Below are positions 5,449 to 61,832 of a stretch of 64,000 bases of DNA, in pieces. Position numbers and translations under genes: made by a program. Each line of letters starts with the position of its first letter. The first letter of the stretch is position 1. A model generated the notes under the pieces. It ran no database searches and was not told the DNA's origin. It saw nothing but the letters and a program-made list of their open reading frames with translations. The DNA comes from Paludibaculum fermentans. Its GTDB lineage: Bacteria > Acidobacteriota > Terriglobia > Bryobacterales > Bryobacteraceae. The stretch is taken from positions 6,649,501 to 6,713,500 of the forward strand of contig NZ_CP063849.1 in the NCBI RefSeq assembly GCF_015277775.1, in the 5' to 3' direction.

Positions 5449-7539
5449 ATGCCTCGCACCATCGCACTCGAGAAGATGAGAAATATCGGCATCATGGCCC
5501 ACATTGATGCCGGTAAGACCACCACGACCGAGCGCATCCTCTATTACACCGGCCGCACCTATAAGATCGGTGAAGTTCATGAAGGCACCGCCACCATGGA
5601 CTGGATGGTGCAAGAGCAGGAGCGTGGTATCACCATCACCTCCGCCGCGACGACCTGCTCCTGGAACGATTACCAGATCAACATCATCGATACACCCGGC
5701 CACGTGGATTTCACGGCTGAAGTGGAGCGTTCGCTCCGTGTGCTCGATGGCGCCGTGGCGGTATTCGACGCCGTGGCTGGTGTGCAGCCGCAGTCGGAAA
5801 CGGTTTGGCGGCAGGCGGACAAGTACGCCGTTCCGCGCGTGTGCTTCATCAATAAGATGGACCGCGTGGGCGCTGACTTCTTCCACGCCGTCGCCACGAT
5901 TGAAGATCGCCTCCATGCTCGTGCGGTGCCGATCCAATTGCCGGTCGGTGCTGAGGACCAGTTCAAAGGCATCATCGACCTGGTCACGATGAAAGCGCGC
6001 ATCTGGCGGGATGAAACCCTCGGGGCCGCATTCGACGACGTCGACATTCCTGCCGACCTGCTGGATCAGGCCAAGGAATACCGCGAAAAGATGGTGGAAG
6101 CGGCTGCTGAAGCCGACGACATCCTCATGGAGAAGTACCTGAACGGTGAGACGCTTACGACCACGGAGATCATCTCCGGGTTGCGCAAGGCGACCATCGC
6201 GCAGACGATCTTCCCTGTGATCTGCGGCACGGCTTTCAAGAACAAAGGCGTCCAGAATATGCTGGACTCCGTGGTGGACCTCCTGCCCTCGCCGCTCGAC
6301 ATCCCGCCCATCAAGGGTTACGACGTCGACGACCGGAGCATTGAGCTGGTCCGTCATGCGGATGACAGCGAACCATTCTCGGCGTTGATCTTCAAGATCA
6401 TGACCGATTCGTTCGTCGGGCAGTTGGCCTTTATCCGGGTTTACTCGGGCAAGCTCAACACGGGCGACACGATTCTCAACGTCAGCAAGGGTCGGCGTGA
6501 ACGCATTGGCCGCCTGGTGAAAATGCACGCCAACAAGCGTGAAGAGATCACCGAGATCTACGCCGGCGACATTGCTGCCTGCGTGGGCCTCAAATCGGTG
6601 ATCACGAGCGATACGATTTGCAGTGAAGAGCATCCGATCTCACTGGAAGCAATTGAGTTTGCCGCCCCGGTGATCCAGTTGGCCATCGAACCCAAAACGA
6701 AGGCCGATCAGGAAAAGCTCGGTATGGCGATTGCGAAGCTGGTGCAGGAAGATCCGACGCTGAAGGTGAACACTGACCCCGAGACGGGACAGACGATTCT
6801 GTCCGGTATGGGTGAGTTGCACCTGGAAATCATTGTCGACCGCCTTCAGCGCGAATTCAACGTGGGCGCCAATGTCGGCAAGCCGCAGGTTGCTTACCGC
6901 GAAACGATTCGCAAGAAGAGTGATGGCGAAGGCCGGTTCGTGCGCCAGACAGGTGGGCGTGGCCAGTACGGTCACATCAAGCTGCACCTCGAGCCGAATC
7001 CGGAAAAAGAGTACGAGTTTGTCAACGGAATCGTTGGCGGCACGGTTCCGAAGGAATATATCGGACCGGCTGAAAAGGGTATTGTCGAGGCCCTCGAGGG
7101 CGGCATTCTGGCGGGCTTCCCGATGGCCAATGTCAAAGTGACGATCTACGACGGTAGCTACCACGACGTCGACTCCTCGGAAATGGCTTTCAAGATCGCC
7201 GGATCGATGGCATTAAAAGATGCCGCTCACAAGGCGAAGCCGGTTCTTCTGGAGCCGGTCATGAGCGTGGAAGTGGTCGTTCCGGACGAGTACATGGGTT
7301 CGGTGAATGGTGACCTGATCAGCCGCCGCGGGCGTCTGGAAGGCATGGAGCTGAAGGGCAACACGCAGATCATCAAGGCGATGGTGCCGCTGTCTGAAAT
7401 GTTCGGCTACGCGACGGAAATCCGTTCGCGGACGCAGGGCAGGGGTAGCTTCACGATGCACTTCGGTCGCTATGAAGAGGCTCCTCAGTCAGTTACCGAG
7501 GAAGTAATCAACAAGATGAAGGGGCAGAGCCCCAGCTAG
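5449..7539 (+). CDS. fusA: Elongation factor G
   Basis: The 696-residue translocase uses GTP hydrolysis to move tRNAs and mRNA after peptide transfer and also helps recycle ribosomes. G1 is [16 protein letters not shown]2 lies in [14 protein letters not shown]3 is DTPGHVDFT and G4 is NKMDRVGAD. They are followed by the domain II barrel, domains III and V, and domain IV with [15 protein letters not shown]. Length and motif order match canonical bacterial EF-G. The 48-nt gap after rpsG contains an extra AAGGAG with no start codon near it. The ATG at 5449 has GGAG about 12 nt upstream. Confidence 0.98.
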
Positions 7540-57332: not shown

Positions 57333-58124
57333 CTAGAGCGACTTCACGACGTTGACCACGAATTCAGCGCAGTACTGACCGGCGATCTTCTCGAAGGTGG
57401 GGTGTTCCCATTCGGTGTCGGAGATGATGCGGATGGCCAGGAAGGGTACGCCCATGGCGAGGGCGGCTCCAGCGGAGTAGGCGCTTTCCATGTCCTCTGA
57501 GTCGGTGCCGTAGGTTCTGTGCAGCCAGTCGATGTGGTCGATCTGGCGATTGAACTGATAGGCGGAACCGACGTTGCCTCGGACGACCCGGCCGCGCGGG
57601 TTCTGGATTCTCTCCGCCACGGAAAGCAGGCGGGCGTCGCCGATGAATGAGGGGAACGCGACGGGGTCGCCGCCGTTGGCCCGGATGCGGTGCGGGACGG
57701 GCTTCCAGTTGGCCGGATTTTGGCCTTGGCCGGGGTCGGCGTGCACGGCGCTGAAAGCCGCATAGTCGGTGGTCTTCTCGCCCAAGACGATGTCCCAGAG
57801 CTTGAGGCTGCGATTGTGGCCGCCGGCCGTGCCCTGGTTGATGATGGCGCGAGGCTGGAACTCGCGGATCCCCAGCGTGGTGACGGCGGCAGCGTTGATG
57901 GGTCCCATATCGGTGCGCGAAAGGACGAGGTTCTGGCGGCCGATGCGGCCGGTCCAGAAGGTCCAGGCATGTAGGCGGACCTCCCTGCGGCCCACAAGGG
58001 ATTCGAGCAGGGGGCCGAGCTCGCTGTCGAGCGCGCCCTGGATGAGCAGGTCCGGCGAGGACTTGGCGGAGGCGGCGGCGCCGCCGGCCAGCGCGGCCAG
58101 CAGGGTGCGGCGAGTGACTGTCAT
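57333..58124 (-). CDS. Exported MTAN-like purine nucleosidase
   Basis: A 263-residue protein from the Met at 58124. It opens with a Tat-like signal (VTRRTLLAALAGGAAASA). The nucleosidase fold is visible in PRAIINQGTAGGHNRSLKLW and DSEDMESAYSAGAALAMGVP, followed by FLAIRIISD, which matches the catalytic Glu-Asp region of 5'-methylthioadenosine/SAH nucleosidases. Usual MTANs are cytoplasmic. Its long N-terminal open frame to 58334 lies inside the permease gene and was rejected. Two bases separate it from the upstream NCS2 permease. It may release adenine or another base outside the cytoplasm for uptake. Substrate is inferred. Confidence 0.82.
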   Translation of the reverse strand: MTVTRRTLLAALAGGAAASAKSSPDLLIQGALDSELGPLLESLVGRREVRLHAWTFWTGRIGRQNLVLSRTDMGPINAAAVTTLGIREFQPRAIINQGTAGGHNRSLKLWDIVLGEKTTDYAAFSAVHADPGQGQNPANWKPVPHRIRANGGDPVAFPSFIGDARLLSVAERIQNPRGRVVRGNVGSAYQFNRQIDHIDWLHRTYGTDSEDMESAYSAGAALAMGVPFLAIRIISDTEWEHPTFEKIAGQYCAEFVVNVVKSL

Positions 58125-58126
58125 GG

Positions 58127-59434
58127 TTATCCCTTTCCGAGATAGAAGAACCGCAGCAGAAACAGAGCCGTCAGGACGTAGACGAGCCAGTTGACCTTGC
58201 GCCACTCGCCGGCGATGACGCGCAGCAGGGTATGCGAGGTAAAGCCGAAGGCGAGACCGTTGGCGATGCTGAACGTGAGCGGAATGGCGGCCAGCGTGAG
58301 GAAGGCGGGGATGGCCACGACGGGTTTGTTCCACTCGATGTCTTCTGTGTGGGTGAGCATGAGCGCGCCGACGATGATGAGCGCCGGGGCGGTGGCCTGG
58401 GCCGGGATGACGCCGAACAGCGGCGCGATGAAGAGGGCGACCAGGAAGAGGAGGCCGCAGACGACGGCCGTAAAACCGCTGCGGCCTCCAGCCACGACTC
58501 CGGCCGCGCTCTCGATGTAGCTGACGACGGTGGAGGTGCCGCAGAGGGCTCCGGCGGTGGAGGCGATGGCATCGGCGGTGAGGATGCGATTGACGCGGGG
58601 GATGTGGCCGTCGCGATCAAAGAGACCGGCGCGTGTCCCGACGGCGACGAGGGTGCCAATGTTGTCGAAGAGGTCGACGAACAGAAAGACAAACACAATC
58701 TCGAGGAGGCCGAGTTTCATGGTGCCGGCGAGGTCGAGTTGGAAGAACGTCGCGGAGAGGTCGGCCGGCGAGTAGGCCTGCGGGTTCCAGCGGACCAATC
58801 CGGTGAGGGCGCCCAGCAGGGTGGTGGCCAGGATCCCGATGAGCATGGCGGCGCGCACGCCCCACGTCATGAGTCCGGCGATGAGGATGAGTCCGAAGAG
58901 GGCGACGAGGGTGCCGGGGTCGCGGAGGTTGCCGAGACTCACGAGGGTGGCCGGATCGGCCTTGATGATGCCTGCGTTGCGGAAGCCGATGAAGGCGATG
59001 AAGAGGCCGATGCCGACGGCGACGGCTGCGTAGAGTTCGCGTGGGATCGATTCGAGGATCAGTTGCCGGATGCCCAGCGCGGTGAGCAGCAGGAAGATGA
59101 TGCCGGAGAGGAAGACCGCGCCGAGGGCGACCTGCCAGGGCACGTGCATGCCGAGGCAGACGGTGTAAGTGAAGTAGGCGTTGAGGCCCATGCCGGGTGC
59201 GAGGGCGATGGGATAGCGGGCGACGATGCCCATCAGCAGGCAGCCGATGGCGGCAGCAAGGCAGGTGGCTGCGGTGACAGCCGTGGCGGGCATGCCGGTC
59301 TCATGCAGGATGGAGGGGTTGACGAAGATGATGTAGGCCATAGTGACGAAGGTCGTCACACCGGCCAGGATCTCGGTGCGCCAGTTCGTACCGAGTTCCT
59401 GAAATTGGAAGTATTGCTCCAGGCGGGCCCGCAT
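58127..59434 (-). CDS. NCS2/AzgA-type nucleobase permease
   Basis: A 435-residue inner-membrane protein with about 12-13 hydrophobic segments. AzgA-type features are TFVTMAYIIFVNPSILHETG near the start, ALAPGMGLNAYFTYTVCLG (about 78-96), LFVDLFDNIGTLVAVGTRAG (about 250-269) and GTSTVVSYIESAAGVVAGGRSG. These match proton symporters for adenine, guanine and hypoxanthine. It is translated 2 nt ahead of the exported nucleosidase. The start is the Met at 59434. It ends FYLGKG. Confidence 0.93.
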   Translation of the reverse strand: MRARLEQYFQFQELGTNWRTEILAGVTTFVTMAYIIFVNPSILHETGMPATAVTAATCLAAAIGCLLMGIVARYPIALAPGMGLNAYFTYTVCLGMHVPWQVALGAVFLSGIIFLLLTALGIRQLILESIPRELYAAVAVGIGLFIAFIGFRNAGIIKADPATLVSLGNLRDPGTLVALFGLILIAGLMTWGVRAAMLIGILATTLLGALTGLVRWNPQAYSPADLSATFFQLDLAGTMKLGLLEIVFVFLFVDLFDNIGTLVAVGTRAGLFDRDGHIPRVNRILTADAIASTAGALCGTSTVVSYIESAAGVVAGGRSGFTAVVCGLLFLVALFIAPLFGVIPAQATAPALIIVGALMLTHTEDIEWNKPVVAIPAFLTLAAIPLTFSIANGLAFGFTSHTLLRVIAGEWRKVNWLVYVLTALFLLRFFYLGKG

Positions 59435-59470: not shown

Positions 59471-60133
59471 TTACTCGGGCAGGACGATGTACGCGCGGAC
59501 CGGGAAGGTGGCTCCGCCTTTCCAGGCAATGGGCACGGCGTGGAGGCGGCCTTCGTTGGTGGCGACGGCTTCCAGATTGGTCATGTGTTCGCAGATGGGG
59601 ATGCCATTGCCGAGCAGGACCGTGTGGGCGGGGCGGCGCAGATCGCCCATGTCGTCGATGTTGACGGAGTCGATTCCGACGAAGACTGCTCCGGCCTCGA
59701 CCAGGTAGAGGCACGCATCCTCGTTGAGGAAGGGATTGGGCTCGAAGTATTCTTCCTTGTTCCAGTGCTGGTCCCAGCCGGTCTGCACGAGGACGGCCTT
59801 GCCTTGCAGATCGAGATCCTGAAACAGGTGGGGGCCGATGCCGCGGCCCAGGTTCTGGCGTGCGTCGACTTTGACGATTTCGAGGTCGGCCAGACGGTCG
59901 AGCGGCAGTTCGGAGAGGTCCGGCGCATCGGGAAAGCGGTGGTAAGGGGAGTCGACGTAGGTGCCGGTGTTGCCGCAGAGGTGCAGGGAGGCGATGAGGA
60001 ACTCCGACTGATTCTTGTACTTGCGGCGCGAGCCGGCGTGGTCGAAGAGGAGGACGGCCTGCGGGCCCGGCAGGCCGGGAAAGGTCTTCATCCCTTCGAT
60101 GATGGGATGGCTGAGTTCGATAAATCGGGGCAT
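59471..60133 (-). CDS. Cyclase-family protein with a variant metal motif
   Basis: A 220-residue protein of the cyclase/kynurenine-formamidase superfamily. The consensus metal motif HxGTHxDxPxH reads NTGTYVDSPYH at 55-65, so the first His is Asn and the second is Tyr, while Asp61 and His65 remain. His51 nearby could help. CEHMTNLEAVA and the ending GATFPVRAYIVLPE are typical. The same substitution is known in a subgroup of the family. Without the two His the usual metal centre may be weakened. It sits within the minus-strand salvage-like run, 36 nt before the permease. Confidence 0.85.
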   Translation of the reverse strand: MPRFIELSHPIIEGMKTFPGLPGPQAVLLFDHAGSRRKYKNQSEFLIASLHLCGNTGTYVDSPYHRFPDAPDLSELPLDRLADLEIVKVDARQNLGRGIGPHLFQDLDLQGKAVLVQTGWDQHWNKEEYFEPNPFLNEDACLYLVEAGAVFVGIDSVNIDDMGDLRRPAHTVLLGNGIPICEHMTNLEAVATNEGRLHAVPIAWKGGATFPVRAYIVLPE

Positions 60134-60140
60134 GAGCCGG

Positions 60141-60392
60141 TTAGGTCTTTAATTTTTGCAGTTCTTCGTCGAGAAAGGCTAACTCACGCTCCAGTTGCAT
60201 GCGAAAACGTGTGTTGCAGGCGGTGATCATCTCCTGCTGGATACGGGTCCGGCTCAGCTGCAGTTGGTTGTACCGGGCCTGGTGTTTACGCTCTTCGTCT
60301 GTCATAGGTGGGGTGTCAGCGTGGCCGGAGCGCCGTTTGCCGACGTCCTCCATCTGGGATTCAATCGATTTACTCTCCCAGCCTCGAGCCAT
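60141..60392 (-). CDS. Small coiled-coil protein of unknown function
   Basis: An 83-residue hydrophilic protein. The first 30 residues are unstructured-looking and the rest is a single charged helix pair (TDEERKHQARYNQLQLSRTR, RMQLERELAFLDEELQKLKT). No signal peptide or metal motif. Spacing (7 nt before the cyclase gene, 55 nt after tenA) and codon use fit a real gene. A Met at residue 30 (MTDEERK) is an alternative start, which would leave just the helical part. I do not recognise a family. Confidence 0.6.
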   Translation of the reverse strand: MARGWESKSIESQMEDVGKRRSGHADTPPMTDEERKHQARYNQLQLSRTRIQQEMITACNTRFRMQLERELAFLDEELQKLKT

Positions 60393-60447: not shown

Positions 60448-61161
60448 TTACGGCTGCCACTGTTCGCGGCGCCAGGCCATGTCCCAGAAGAGGTATTCGT
60501 AACGGGCGCTGCGGACGAATAACCGCAGGGCTTCCCGGCGCTGATCGGGCGATGCCTGGGACGCCGATTCGTTCATCATGGCGAGCACCTGGCGGACCGT
60601 GGTGGCGTACTCCTCGCCTGCGTAATTGTCGATCCAGCGCTGGTAGTCTTTGTTTCGCGAGCCCTGGCGCACCAGTTGCTTGCCCACTTCCCAATAGATC
60701 CAGTAGCAGGGGAGCATCGCGGACAGACCCTCGGAGAAAGTGAGGCGCTGGACGGCAGCCAGCAGGTGGTTCGTGTAGGCGGCATTGGTGGGGGCCATCT
60801 CCGCGGCGGCGGCCATGGCAGGGGTGACGCCATAGGAGGCCAGCACCACCTGATGCATACGGCGCTCCTCTTTGAGGGTGTCAATGGAGTGCTGGGCGAG
60901 GGTGAGCGACCAGTCCTCGCGGGGCGCCTTCGCGGCTAGAAGATTCAAGGCCTGCGCGAATGCGCGCAGGTAGAGGCTGTCCTGGATGAGGTAGAACTGG
61001 AAGCACTCCCGCGGCAGGGTTCCGTCGGAGAGGCCCTTAAGGAACGGGTGGGCGAGGGTTTTTGCGTAGATCTGCCCGATGGCGGACCACTGCTCGGTGG
61101 TGAAGTCCGCCGCGCGGCAGGGCAAGGCAGCCAGCATAAGAAGGAGGGAGCGGCGTGTCAT
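60448..61161 (-). CDS. Exported TenA/thiaminase-II-like protein
   Basis: A 237-residue protein with a twin-arginine-like signal (TRRSLLLMLAALPCRA). The TenA helical fold begins LWSAIGQIYAKTLAHPFLKG-like (seen as IYAKTLAHPFLKGL). The catalytic Cys is Cys152 in LPCYWIYWEVG. FQFYLIQDSLYLRAFAQALN gives the substrate-binding Asp61. YEYLFWDMAW near the end holds the catalytic Glu. TenA normally hydrolyses thiamine breakdown products in the cytoplasm, so the export signal is unusual. The start overlaps the UDG stop by 4 nt. Confidence 0.88.
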   Translation of the reverse strand: MTRRSLLLMLAALPCRAADFTTEQWSAIGQIYAKTLAHPFLKGLSDGTLPRECFQFYLIQDSLYLRAFAQALNLLAAKAPREDWSLTLAQHSIDTLKEERRMHQVVLASYGVTPAMAAAAEMAPTNAAYTNHLLAAVQRLTFSEGLSAMLPCYWIYWEVGKQLVRQGSRNKDYQRWIDNYAGEEYATTVRQVLAMMNESASQASPDQRREALRLFVRSARYEYLFWDMAWRREQWQP

Positions 61162-61832
61162 GCCACCAGCCTCTGAGCACGCTCGAACACGGCACGCAGC
61201 ATGGGTTCCGTGAGTTTCCCCGTGGAGGTGTTCTGCTGGCTGGGGTGATAGGAACTGATCAGGATGGGCTCACCCGCACCGAGATGGAATTCGCCGTCAT
61301 GCTTGAACTCGAATTTCGAGCGGCGCTTGCCAAGGTAGTTGTCAAAGGCCAGGCGGCCGAGAGCCACCACGACTTTCACCTGCTTTATCAGGACGAGTTC
61401 CTGGTCGAGATACACACGGCAGGCGACGATCTCCTGCGGAGTGGGTTTGTTGTCTGGCGGCGCGCAGCGGACACTGGCGCTGACCCAGGCGTTGGTCAAC
61501 TGGAGGCCGTCGCCGCGATGGTCGCTGGAGGGCTGGTTGGCGAAACCGGTCTGGTGGAGGGCGCGGTAGAGCCAGTAGCCGGAGCGGTCGCCGGTGAAGA
61601 CGCGGCCCGTCCGGTTGGCGCCGTGGGCAGCGGGCGCGAGACCCAGGATGAATACCTGGGCGCGCGGATCGCCGAAGCCGGGTACTGGCCGCCCCCAGTA
61701 GTCCCAATCAAGATAGGCGCGGCGTTTGACGCGCGCGACTTCCTGGCAGTATTCCCGCAAGCGCGGGCAGTGCTCGCACTGGATGATCTCTTGTTCGAGC
61801 TGGGCCAGCCCCTTCGGCATCGCGGCTTTCAT
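61158..61832 (-). CDS. Uracil-DNA glycosylase, family 5 (UDGb)-like
   Basis: A 224-residue iron-sulfur glycosylase that removes uracil and other deaminated bases from DNA. The motif GLAPAAHGANRTGRVFTGD (about 64-82) is diagnostic for family 5: it has Ala-Asn rather than the usual catalytic Asp/Glu. Cluster ligands are Cys19, Cys22 and others (QCEHC, RCAPPDNK, VACRVY). SSYHPSQQNTSTGKL is motif 3. The start is the Met at 61832 or the one four codons later. It is divergent from the DegT gene with only 43 nt between. Confidence 0.92.
   Translation of the reverse strand: MKAAMPKGLAQLEQEIIQCEHCPRLREYCQEVARVKRRAYLDWDYWGRPVPGFGDPRAQVFILGLAPAAHGANRTGRVFTGDRSGYWLYRALHQTGFANQPSSDHRGDGLQLTNAWVSASVRCAPPDNKPTPQEIVACRVYLDQELVLIKQVKVVVALGRLAFDNYLGKRRSKFEFKHDGEFHLGAGEPILISSYHPSQQNTSTGKLTEPMLRAVFERAQRLVA

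What the first reader, a model, noticed from the sequence alone, without database searches (positions are those of the whole stretch)
57333..59434. Nucleobase permease and exported nucleosidase encoded 2 nt apart
The NCS2/AzgA-like permease stop and the exported MTAN-like start are separated by two bases, so they are likely translated together. An exported nucleosidase would free a purine base in the periplasm, and the permease could import it. That would be salvage of extracellular or envelope-shed nucleosides, unlike the textbook cytoplasmic MTAN.
Basis: inference. Interest (0 to 1): 0.6.

Follow-up and report, generated by a model that had tools for sequence, protein, structure and literature searches.

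The report
Exported nucleosidase paired with adenine permease
Some soil acidobacteria carry, back to back, a gene for an enzyme sent outside the cell membrane that should cut adenine off nucleosides and a gene for a pump that should bring that adenine in, which looks like a two-gene device for scavenging adenine.

Summary
In detail: permease stop (58127) and nucleosidase start (58124) are two bases apart. The pair is conserved: of 151 genomes (own included) 9 carry a full-length orthologue, and in all 9 it lies directly behind the same permease. A wider scan makes 13 distinct genomes. The nucleosidase is patchy: the permease is in 107 of 151, and a sister species keeps only a scar of the nucleosidase gene.

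The enzyme belongs to a known exported family whose solved member is the periplasmic MTAN of Aeromonas hydrophila (41% identity, Z 37). Of 81 members aligned, 69 have Asn where MTANs have the catalytic Asp; the permease-linked clade has Asp. The permease is closer to adenine (AdeP/AdeQ) than to guanine/hypoxanthine transporters. A different clade of the family, which lost its signal peptide, sits beside a nucleoside transporter (NupC) instead, as the model predicts, though this is one evolutionary event.

Best reading: periplasmic release of adenine from MTA/SAH/5'-deoxyadenosine-type nucleosides, then adenine import. No activity was tested. A new variant of a known kind.

The parts
57333..58124 (-). 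exported MTAN-type nucleosidase, 263 aa plus stop
   Evidence: PF01048 E 2.5e-33; best PDB relative the periplasmic MTAN of A. hydrophila, Z 37.3, rmsd 1.2 over 240 residues
58065..58124 (-). N-terminal export signal, Tat-like (TRRTLL plus hydrophobic stretch)
   Evidence: read from the sequence; export-type N-termini of differing kinds in the linked relatives; no predictor available
58020..58022 (-). codon of Glu35 (E. coli MTAN Glu12)
   Evidence: E in 81 of 81 aligned sequences; position from the alignment with 3dp9, E. coli numbering recalled
57486..57488 (-). codon of Glu213 (E. coli MTAN Glu174)
   Evidence: E in 81 of 81
57417..57419 (-). codon of Asp236 (E. coli MTAN Asp197); Asn in most of this exported family
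   Evidence: 12 D and 69 N among 81 sequences
58125..58126 (-). two-base gap between permease stop and nucleosidase start
58127..59434 (-). AzgA/AdeP-like nucleobase permease, 435 aa plus stop
   Evidence: PF00860 E 3.1e-43; 44/43% to E. coli AdeP/AdeQ, 35/36% to GhxP/GhxQ; AZG1 in PDB, E 5.7e-64
59471..60133 (-). cyclase-family hydrolase upstream, same strand, 36-nt gap (context)
   Evidence: PF04199 E 2.4e-21
60141..60392 (-). 83-aa protein of unknown family upstream (context)
   Evidence: no Pfam match; found upstream of the permease in genus members
60448..61161 (-). TenA (thiaminase II) with an export-like N-terminus (context)
   Evidence: TIGR04306 157.5 bits over cut-off 130; N-terminus read
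61158..61832 (-). uracil-DNA glycosylase-superfamily protein, overlapping tenA by 4 nt (context)
   Evidence: PF03167 E 1.6e-26

Best explanation
The two genes form a translationally coupled adenine-scavenging unit. The nucleosidase is exported and, in the periplasm, hydrolyses adenine nucleosides with a missing or changed 5'-hydroxyl (5'-methylthioadenosine, S-adenosylhomocysteine, 5'-deoxyadenosine; perhaps adenosine), freeing adenine. The AdeP-like permease imports the adenine, presumably by proton symport, and cytoplasmic adenine phosphoribosyltransferase turns it into AMP. Shown here: gene order, conservation, predicted fold, catalytic residues, permease subtype, and the presence of genes for APRT, MTA phosphorylase and SAH hydrolase. 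Inferred: export, substrate, direction of transport and physiological use.
For: Linkage: 9 of 9 full-length orthologues among 151 genomes follow this permease; 13 distinct genomes in all. In 6 of those 13 (L053-L056, L059, L062) none of the window's other tested neighbours was found within the fetched flank, so the pair is the conserved unit. On a tree of 35 permeases, presence of the nucleosidase needs 8 changes (at least 3 forced by starred branches). Export: all 13 linked enzymes have export-type N-termini by reading, of differing kinds: Tat-like RR, Sec-like, two lipoprotein-like (L050-L052 fell under my hydrophobicity cut-off). Catalysis: Glu35, Glu213 and Asp236 match the catalytic residues of classical MTANs; model pLDDT 92, Z 37.3 to periplasmic MTAN. 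Asp-to-Asn mutants of two classical MTANs were solved with MTA bound, by the titles of 1z5o and 4p54. Permease: closer to adenine (AdeP/AdeQ) than guanine/hypoxanthine transporters, with the AdeP-type Asn in GLNAYF where GhxP/Q have Thr. Cytoplasm: MTAP, SahH and APRT over their cut-offs, and no canonical MTAN over cut-off among the six of seven PF01048 genes scanned with NCBIfam (L005 not scanned). Compartment logic: the 11 loci with a NupC-type gene directly downstream all encode enzymes without a hydrophobic N-terminus.
Against: No activity, localisation or transport was tested. The nucleosidase is missing from most permease-bearing relatives (permease in 107 of 151, nucleosidase in 9) and was lost in sister G002, so it is dispensable. 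Scores are under the equivalog cut-offs for MTAN (90.7 of 169; 54.1 of 73.8). Linkage with Asp, and NupC with signal loss, amount to one independent contrast each, so neither correlation can be tested statistically. Support for the linked clade is weak (65/9). Outside Acidobacteriota, none of 68 family loci has an adjacent NCS2 gene. The nearest solved relative has Asn, not Asp, at the catalytic position.
Confidence: 0.7

Rival explanations
1. The enzyme is a broad purine nucleosidase that cuts ordinary adenosine (and inosine) from decaying RNA, DNA or ATP, rather than 5'-modified adenosines; the permease still imports the base.
For: It is far from classical MTANs (41% to the A. hydrophila periplasmic enzyme, 19-27% to the other bacterial MTANs listed) and has extra residues in the middle of the chain relative to 3dp9, so the 5' pocket may differ. 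Adenosine is probably the commoner extracellular substrate (general knowledge). Plants use extracellular NSH3 on adenosine and inosine, with import of the base (PMC4158802, passages).
Against: Fold and catalytic set are those of MTANs. Asp236 argues against a 6-oxopurine preference (recalled from PNP work, no call). The 5' pocket was not modelled with ligands.
Confidence: 0.2
2. The nucleosidase removes extracellular MTA or SAH as toxic or signalling molecules; adenine uptake is incidental.
For: [quoted passage not shown]
Against: Cytoplasmic MTAP and SahH already exist. It would not explain the tight coupling to an adenine-type permease.
Confidence: 0.05
3. The permease is part of an upstream module with exported TenA and a formamidase-like cyclase that scavenges thiamin pyrimidine fragments; the nucleosidase is an add-on.
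For: TenA with an export-like N-terminus and the cyclase lie upstream on the same strand with small gaps. TenA is also upstream in the linked loci L050-L052, and the cyclase in L049.
Against: Of 20 permease regions without the nucleosidase (6 of them cut short by contig ends), TenA was found in 3 and the cyclase in 2. The permease is AdeP-like with the purine-binding motifs.
Confidence: 0.03
4. The neighbourhood is an accident of inheritance and the enzyme is decaying or has another job.
For: Patchy presence; a decayed remnant in G002.
Against: In 13 genomes the catalytic residues, export-type N-terminus and adjacency persist at down to 44% identity, while the tested outer genes were not found in 6.
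Confidence: 0.02

Closest known systems
Periplasmic MTA/SAH nucleosidase of Aeromonas hydrophila (PDB 5B7G/N/P/Q; entry titles seen, article not found)
   Same: same subfamily: 41% identity, Z 37.3, rmsd 1.2 over 240 residues; periplasmic by its title
   Different: Asn at the catalytic Asp position, here Asp; in six Aeromonas loci an NCS2 gene lies about 2.6-4 kb downstream, not adjacent
Borrelia burgdorferi Bgp and MtnN, exported MTANs with proposed adenine salvage (PMC7557402, passages)
   Same: exported MTAN activity thought to supply transportable adenine; AzgA-like BBB22/BBB23 exist in that organism (PMC11527162 passage)
   Different: the Borrelia MTAN in the PDB, 4l0m, is more distant (Z 28.8, 23% identity; which of the three it is was not checked); linkage to a permease there was not examined
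Plant extracellular NSH3 nucleoside hydrolase with base import (PMC4158802, passages)
   Same: same logic: cut the nucleoside outside, import the base; AtAzg1/2 are AzgA-family adenine/guanine transporters
   Different: a plant enzyme described there as a nucleoside hydrolase, not an MTAN; co-encoding with a transporter not examined
E. coli AdeP/AdeQ adenine transporters
   Same: 44/43% identity, same motif-2 Asn
   Different: no nucleosidase gene in the two stretches viewed; adeQ lies beside adeD, adenine deaminase

Membership tests
Canonical MTAN (TIGR01704 / PRK05584) | NCBIfam equivalog score cut-off | tested here: not met
   54.1 of 73.8 bits; 90.7 of 169 bits
Canonical MTAN (TIGR01704 / PRK05584) | catalytic Glu12, Glu174, Asp197 (E. 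coli numbering, recalled) | tested here: met
   Glu35, Glu213, Asp236
Canonical MTAN (TIGR01704 / PRK05584) | hydrolysis of MTA and SAH | not testable with these tools
   needs an enzyme assay
A. hydrophila-type periplasmic MTAN subfamily | sequence and fold closest to 5B7x | tested here: met
   E 1.1e-52 against 1.7e-14 for the next protein; Z 37.3 against 32.2
A. hydrophila-type periplasmic MTAN subfamily | export signal | tested here: inconclusive
   hydrophobic Tat-like N-terminus by reading; no trained predictor
A. hydrophila-type periplasmic MTAN subfamily | Asn at the Asp197 position (common in the family, not a defining feature) | tested here: not met
   Asp here; Asn in 69 of 81
AzgA-like purine permeases | motifs 1 to 4 of PMC11527162 | tested here: met
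   motifs 1, 3 and the start of 4 exact; motif 2 exact but for its last position, Cys for Val; the rest of motif 4 was not visible in the passage
AzgA-like purine permeases | adenine (AdeP/AdeQ) rather than guanine/hypoxanthine type | tested here: met
   44/43% against 35/36% identity; Asn in GLNAYF
AzgA-like purine permeases | adenine transport | not testable with these tools
   needs an uptake assay

The most novel reading that the evidence does not exclude
A co-encoded adenine-mining unit in which the enzyme's compartment and chemistry evolved to fit its transporter. In an old exported family that mostly carries Asn at the catalytic Asp position, the branch that joined an adenine permease carries Asp, while another branch that joined a nucleoside importer (NupC) lost its export signal. 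In the genus of the window the same gene run adds an export-type TenA, hinting at a general periplasmic N-heterocycle salvage operon.
Probability: 0.25. Interest if true: 0.7.

Novelty: new variant of a known kind. Interest (0 to 1): 0.5.

Why it matters
If true, it gives free-living soil bacteria a dedicated route to extracellular adenine nucleosides, of the kind proposed for Borrelia. It also makes the periplasmic MTAN family testable: the natural Asp/Asn difference and the swap of transporter (AdeP-like with exported enzyme, NupC with signal-less enzyme) predict substrate and compartment.

Tried and rejected
Neighbourhood by accident: not favoured, because the tested outer neighbours were not found in 6 of 13 loci while the pair stays. 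The pair as a general acidobacterial trait: rejected. Only 9 of 151 genomes (own included) and 2 of 396 phylum genomes (own included; only six candidates per genome were scored) have the nucleosidase, and the second of those two, G419, has no permease in its 1.5-kb flanks. Co-transfer of the pair: not resolved; presence is scattered on the permease tree (8 changes, 3 forced). Independent contrasts (NupC against signal loss, linkage against Asp) gave one pair each, too few for a test. A tree rooted on E. coli MTAN joined two long branches (E. coli MTAN and L127, which also has Asp), so whether Asp was regained or kept depends on a doubtful root. The G064 match (33%, residues 25-119) was left out as another protein. 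Six Aeromonas loci with NCS2 2.6-4 kb downstream were not counted as paired. The neighbour table used a simple ORF caller of my own: it failed to call the nucleosidase in 4 of 80 loci (L049, L054, L097, L115) and miscalled some GC-rich genes, so neighbour counts rest on 76. Literature: nine searches showed no paper on an NCS2-MTAN pair in their listings, nor the article behind PDB 5B7x; the library is open-access only, so this is weak. That Asn/Asp at this site separates 6-oxo- from 6-aminopurine specificity in PNPs is recalled, not from a call.

Full report
WHAT IS THERE. On the minus strand a 435-codon permease gene (59434-58127) is followed after two bases by a 263-codon nucleosidase gene (58124-57333). 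The permease matches PF00860 (E 3.1e-43) and the nucleosidase PF01048 (E 2.5e-33), both over their cut-offs. AAGGGA lies near the end of the permease gene, so coupled translation is likely. Four more genes lie upstream on the same strand with gaps of at most 55 nt: cyclase family, an 83-aa protein, TenA and a UDG-superfamily protein.

THE ENZYME. It is below the NCBIfam cut-offs for canonical MTAN. Its closest solved relative is the periplasmic MTA/SAH nucleosidase of Aeromonas hydrophila: E 1.1e-52, the next protein 1.7e-14; Z 37.3, rmsd 1.2 over 240 residues, next Z 32.2. The model is good (pLDDT 92, pTM 0.88, 34 sequences). The catalytic residues of classical MTANs (Glu12, Glu174, Asp197; numbering recalled) correspond to Glu35, Glu213 and Asp236 (alignment with 3dp9).

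THE FAMILY. A scan of one genome for each of 84,980 species found 484 loci encoding relatives, of which the tool kept the best 80: Bacillota, Vibrionaceae, Shewanella, Aeromonas, Desulfoluna, Fusobacteria, Spirochaetes, Acidobacteriota and others. By a hydrophobicity count of my own 64 of 80 have an export-type N-terminus. The 16 below the cut-off are the 11 NupC-linked loci, two Desemzia (L087, L106) and L050-L052; the last three have a twin arginine and look exported on reading. Many Gram-positive members look like lipoproteins. Glu35 and Glu213 are invariant in 81 of 81 sequences (80 loci and the window), but the Asp236 column holds 69 Asn and 12 Asp. Asp occurs in the window, the 10 permease-linked loci of that set and L127. 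L010 and L016, not in that count, are two more linked genomes with Asp. Solved classical MTANs with Asp changed to Asn at this site were crystallised with MTA bound (titles of 1z5o, 4p54), so the natural Asn enzymes may be slow or have another substrate, while the linked clade should be active on adenine nucleosides (inference).

THE PAIR IS CONSERVED, THE GENE IS NOT. Among 151 genomes (own included) 10 have a match and 9 are full-length; the tenth (G064, 33% over residues 25-119) is another protein. All 9 lie directly behind the permease. Two further acidobacterial loci of the same clade, L057 and L058, are not linked and carry Asn; there the nucleosidase overlaps the next gene, an aroD-aroE fusion, by 4 nt. 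In L053-L056, L059 and L062 none of the window's other tested neighbours was found in the fetched flanks. Outside Acidobacteriota 0 of 68 loci have an adjacent NCS2 gene. The permease itself occurs in 107 of 151 genomes, so most have it alone. In the genus, G002 has a 99% identical permease and, at the nucleosidase's place, some 20-30 bases resembling its start with the ATG changed, then a jump to the next gene: a loss. On a tree of 35 permeases (13 with, 22 without the nucleosidase) its presence changes 8 times, 3 forced. Among 396 genomes drawn from the phylum 2 had a match (six candidates scored per genome); the one other than the window's, G419, has no permease in its 1.5-kb flanks.

THE PERMEASE. 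It is 44% and 43% identical to E. coli adenine transporters AdeP and AdeQ, and 35% and 36% to guanine/hypoxanthine transporters GhxP and GhxQ; XanQ did not match. AzgA motifs 1, 3 and the start of 4 are exact, motif 2 but for its last position (motifs from PMC11527162 passages; test). The Asn proposed to bind purine (N131 of AzgA; its place in motif 2 is my inference) is Asn here and in AdeP/AdeQ but Thr in GhxP/GhxQ. The genome has a second PF00860 match, weaker (39 bits, over the cut-off of 27), which I did not follow.

THE REST OF THE PATHWAY. The genome encodes an MTA phosphorylase (323 bits, cut-off 275), an SAH hydrolase (636.5, cut-off 497.6) and an adenine phosphoribosyltransferase (223.6, cut-off 185.9). 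The 8 PF01048 matches are 7 genes (L007 and L008 are one). Besides the window gene and the MTA phosphorylase (L002), L001 is a PNP, L007 is HpnG-like but under cut-off, L004 and L006 are unassigned, and L005 was not scanned with NCBIfam. None scanned is a canonical MTAN over cut-off. So MTA and SAH made inside have other routes.

A NATURAL CONTRAST. In 11 of the 76 loci whose neighbours could be called (nine Shewanella, two Vibrio) the next gene on the same strand is of one cluster, 42-218 nt downstream. The two members scanned (L092, L110) are NupC-type nucleoside transporters by Pfam, and L092 by TIGR00804 (463 bits, cut-off 442). In all 11 the enzyme has no hydrophobic N-terminus. Two Desemzia enzymes also appear to lack one, without NupC. 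So a signal-less enzyme goes with an importer of whole nucleosides, and an exported one with an importer of bases. Each linked group is one side of one branch (NupC 98/89; NCS2 only 65/9), so this is a consistent pattern and not a statistical test.

HOW IT PROBABLY WORKS. Periplasmic hydrolysis frees adenine; the AdeP-like permease imports it; APRT makes AMP. The sugar part would stay outside. Export, substrate and direction are inferred.

COMPARISON. Exported MTANs that supply adenine were proposed for Borrelia (PMC7557402, passages read). Plants cut nucleosides outside with NSH3 and import bases, and AtAzg1/2 are of this permease family (PMC4158802, passages). In the listings of nine searches I saw no paper on the two genes as a unit.

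Noticed in passing
60448-61161 (-): TenA (thiaminase II) with an export-like N-terminus here and in G002 and G004, but not clearly in G037; an exported TenA upstream of a nucleobase permease seems unusual.
   Followed up: partly
L006:1384-2142 (own genome C1:8120680-8121282): A second PF01048 protein with a Tat-like N-terminus, over no NCBIfam equivalog cut-off.
   Followed up: partly
L138 (G002), around 5890-6072: Scar of a deleted nucleosidase gene beside a 99% identical permease.
   Followed up: yes
L057:1529-3888 and L058:6001-8234: Exported nucleosidase overlapping an aroD-aroE fusion gene by 4 nt in two other Acidobacteria (Pfam run on L058 only); in Fusobacterium L104 the next gene is a class II dehydroquinase.
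   Followed up: no
60141-60392 (-): 83-aa protein without Pfam match, found between UDG or TenA and the permease in genus members.
   Followed up: no
L102 and Photobacterium loci L112, L113, L118: Inosine-uridine nucleoside hydrolase-like genes near the exported nucleosidase (cluster 11; Pfam run on L102 only).
   Followed up: no
G000:C1:6372108-6373055 (L159): A second, weak PF00860 match in the own genome (39 bits, 566-aa frame), not identified.
   Followed up: no
L051: Contig filed under Arcobacter carries Bryobacteraceae-like genes; probably a mis-binned metagenome contig.
   Followed up: no
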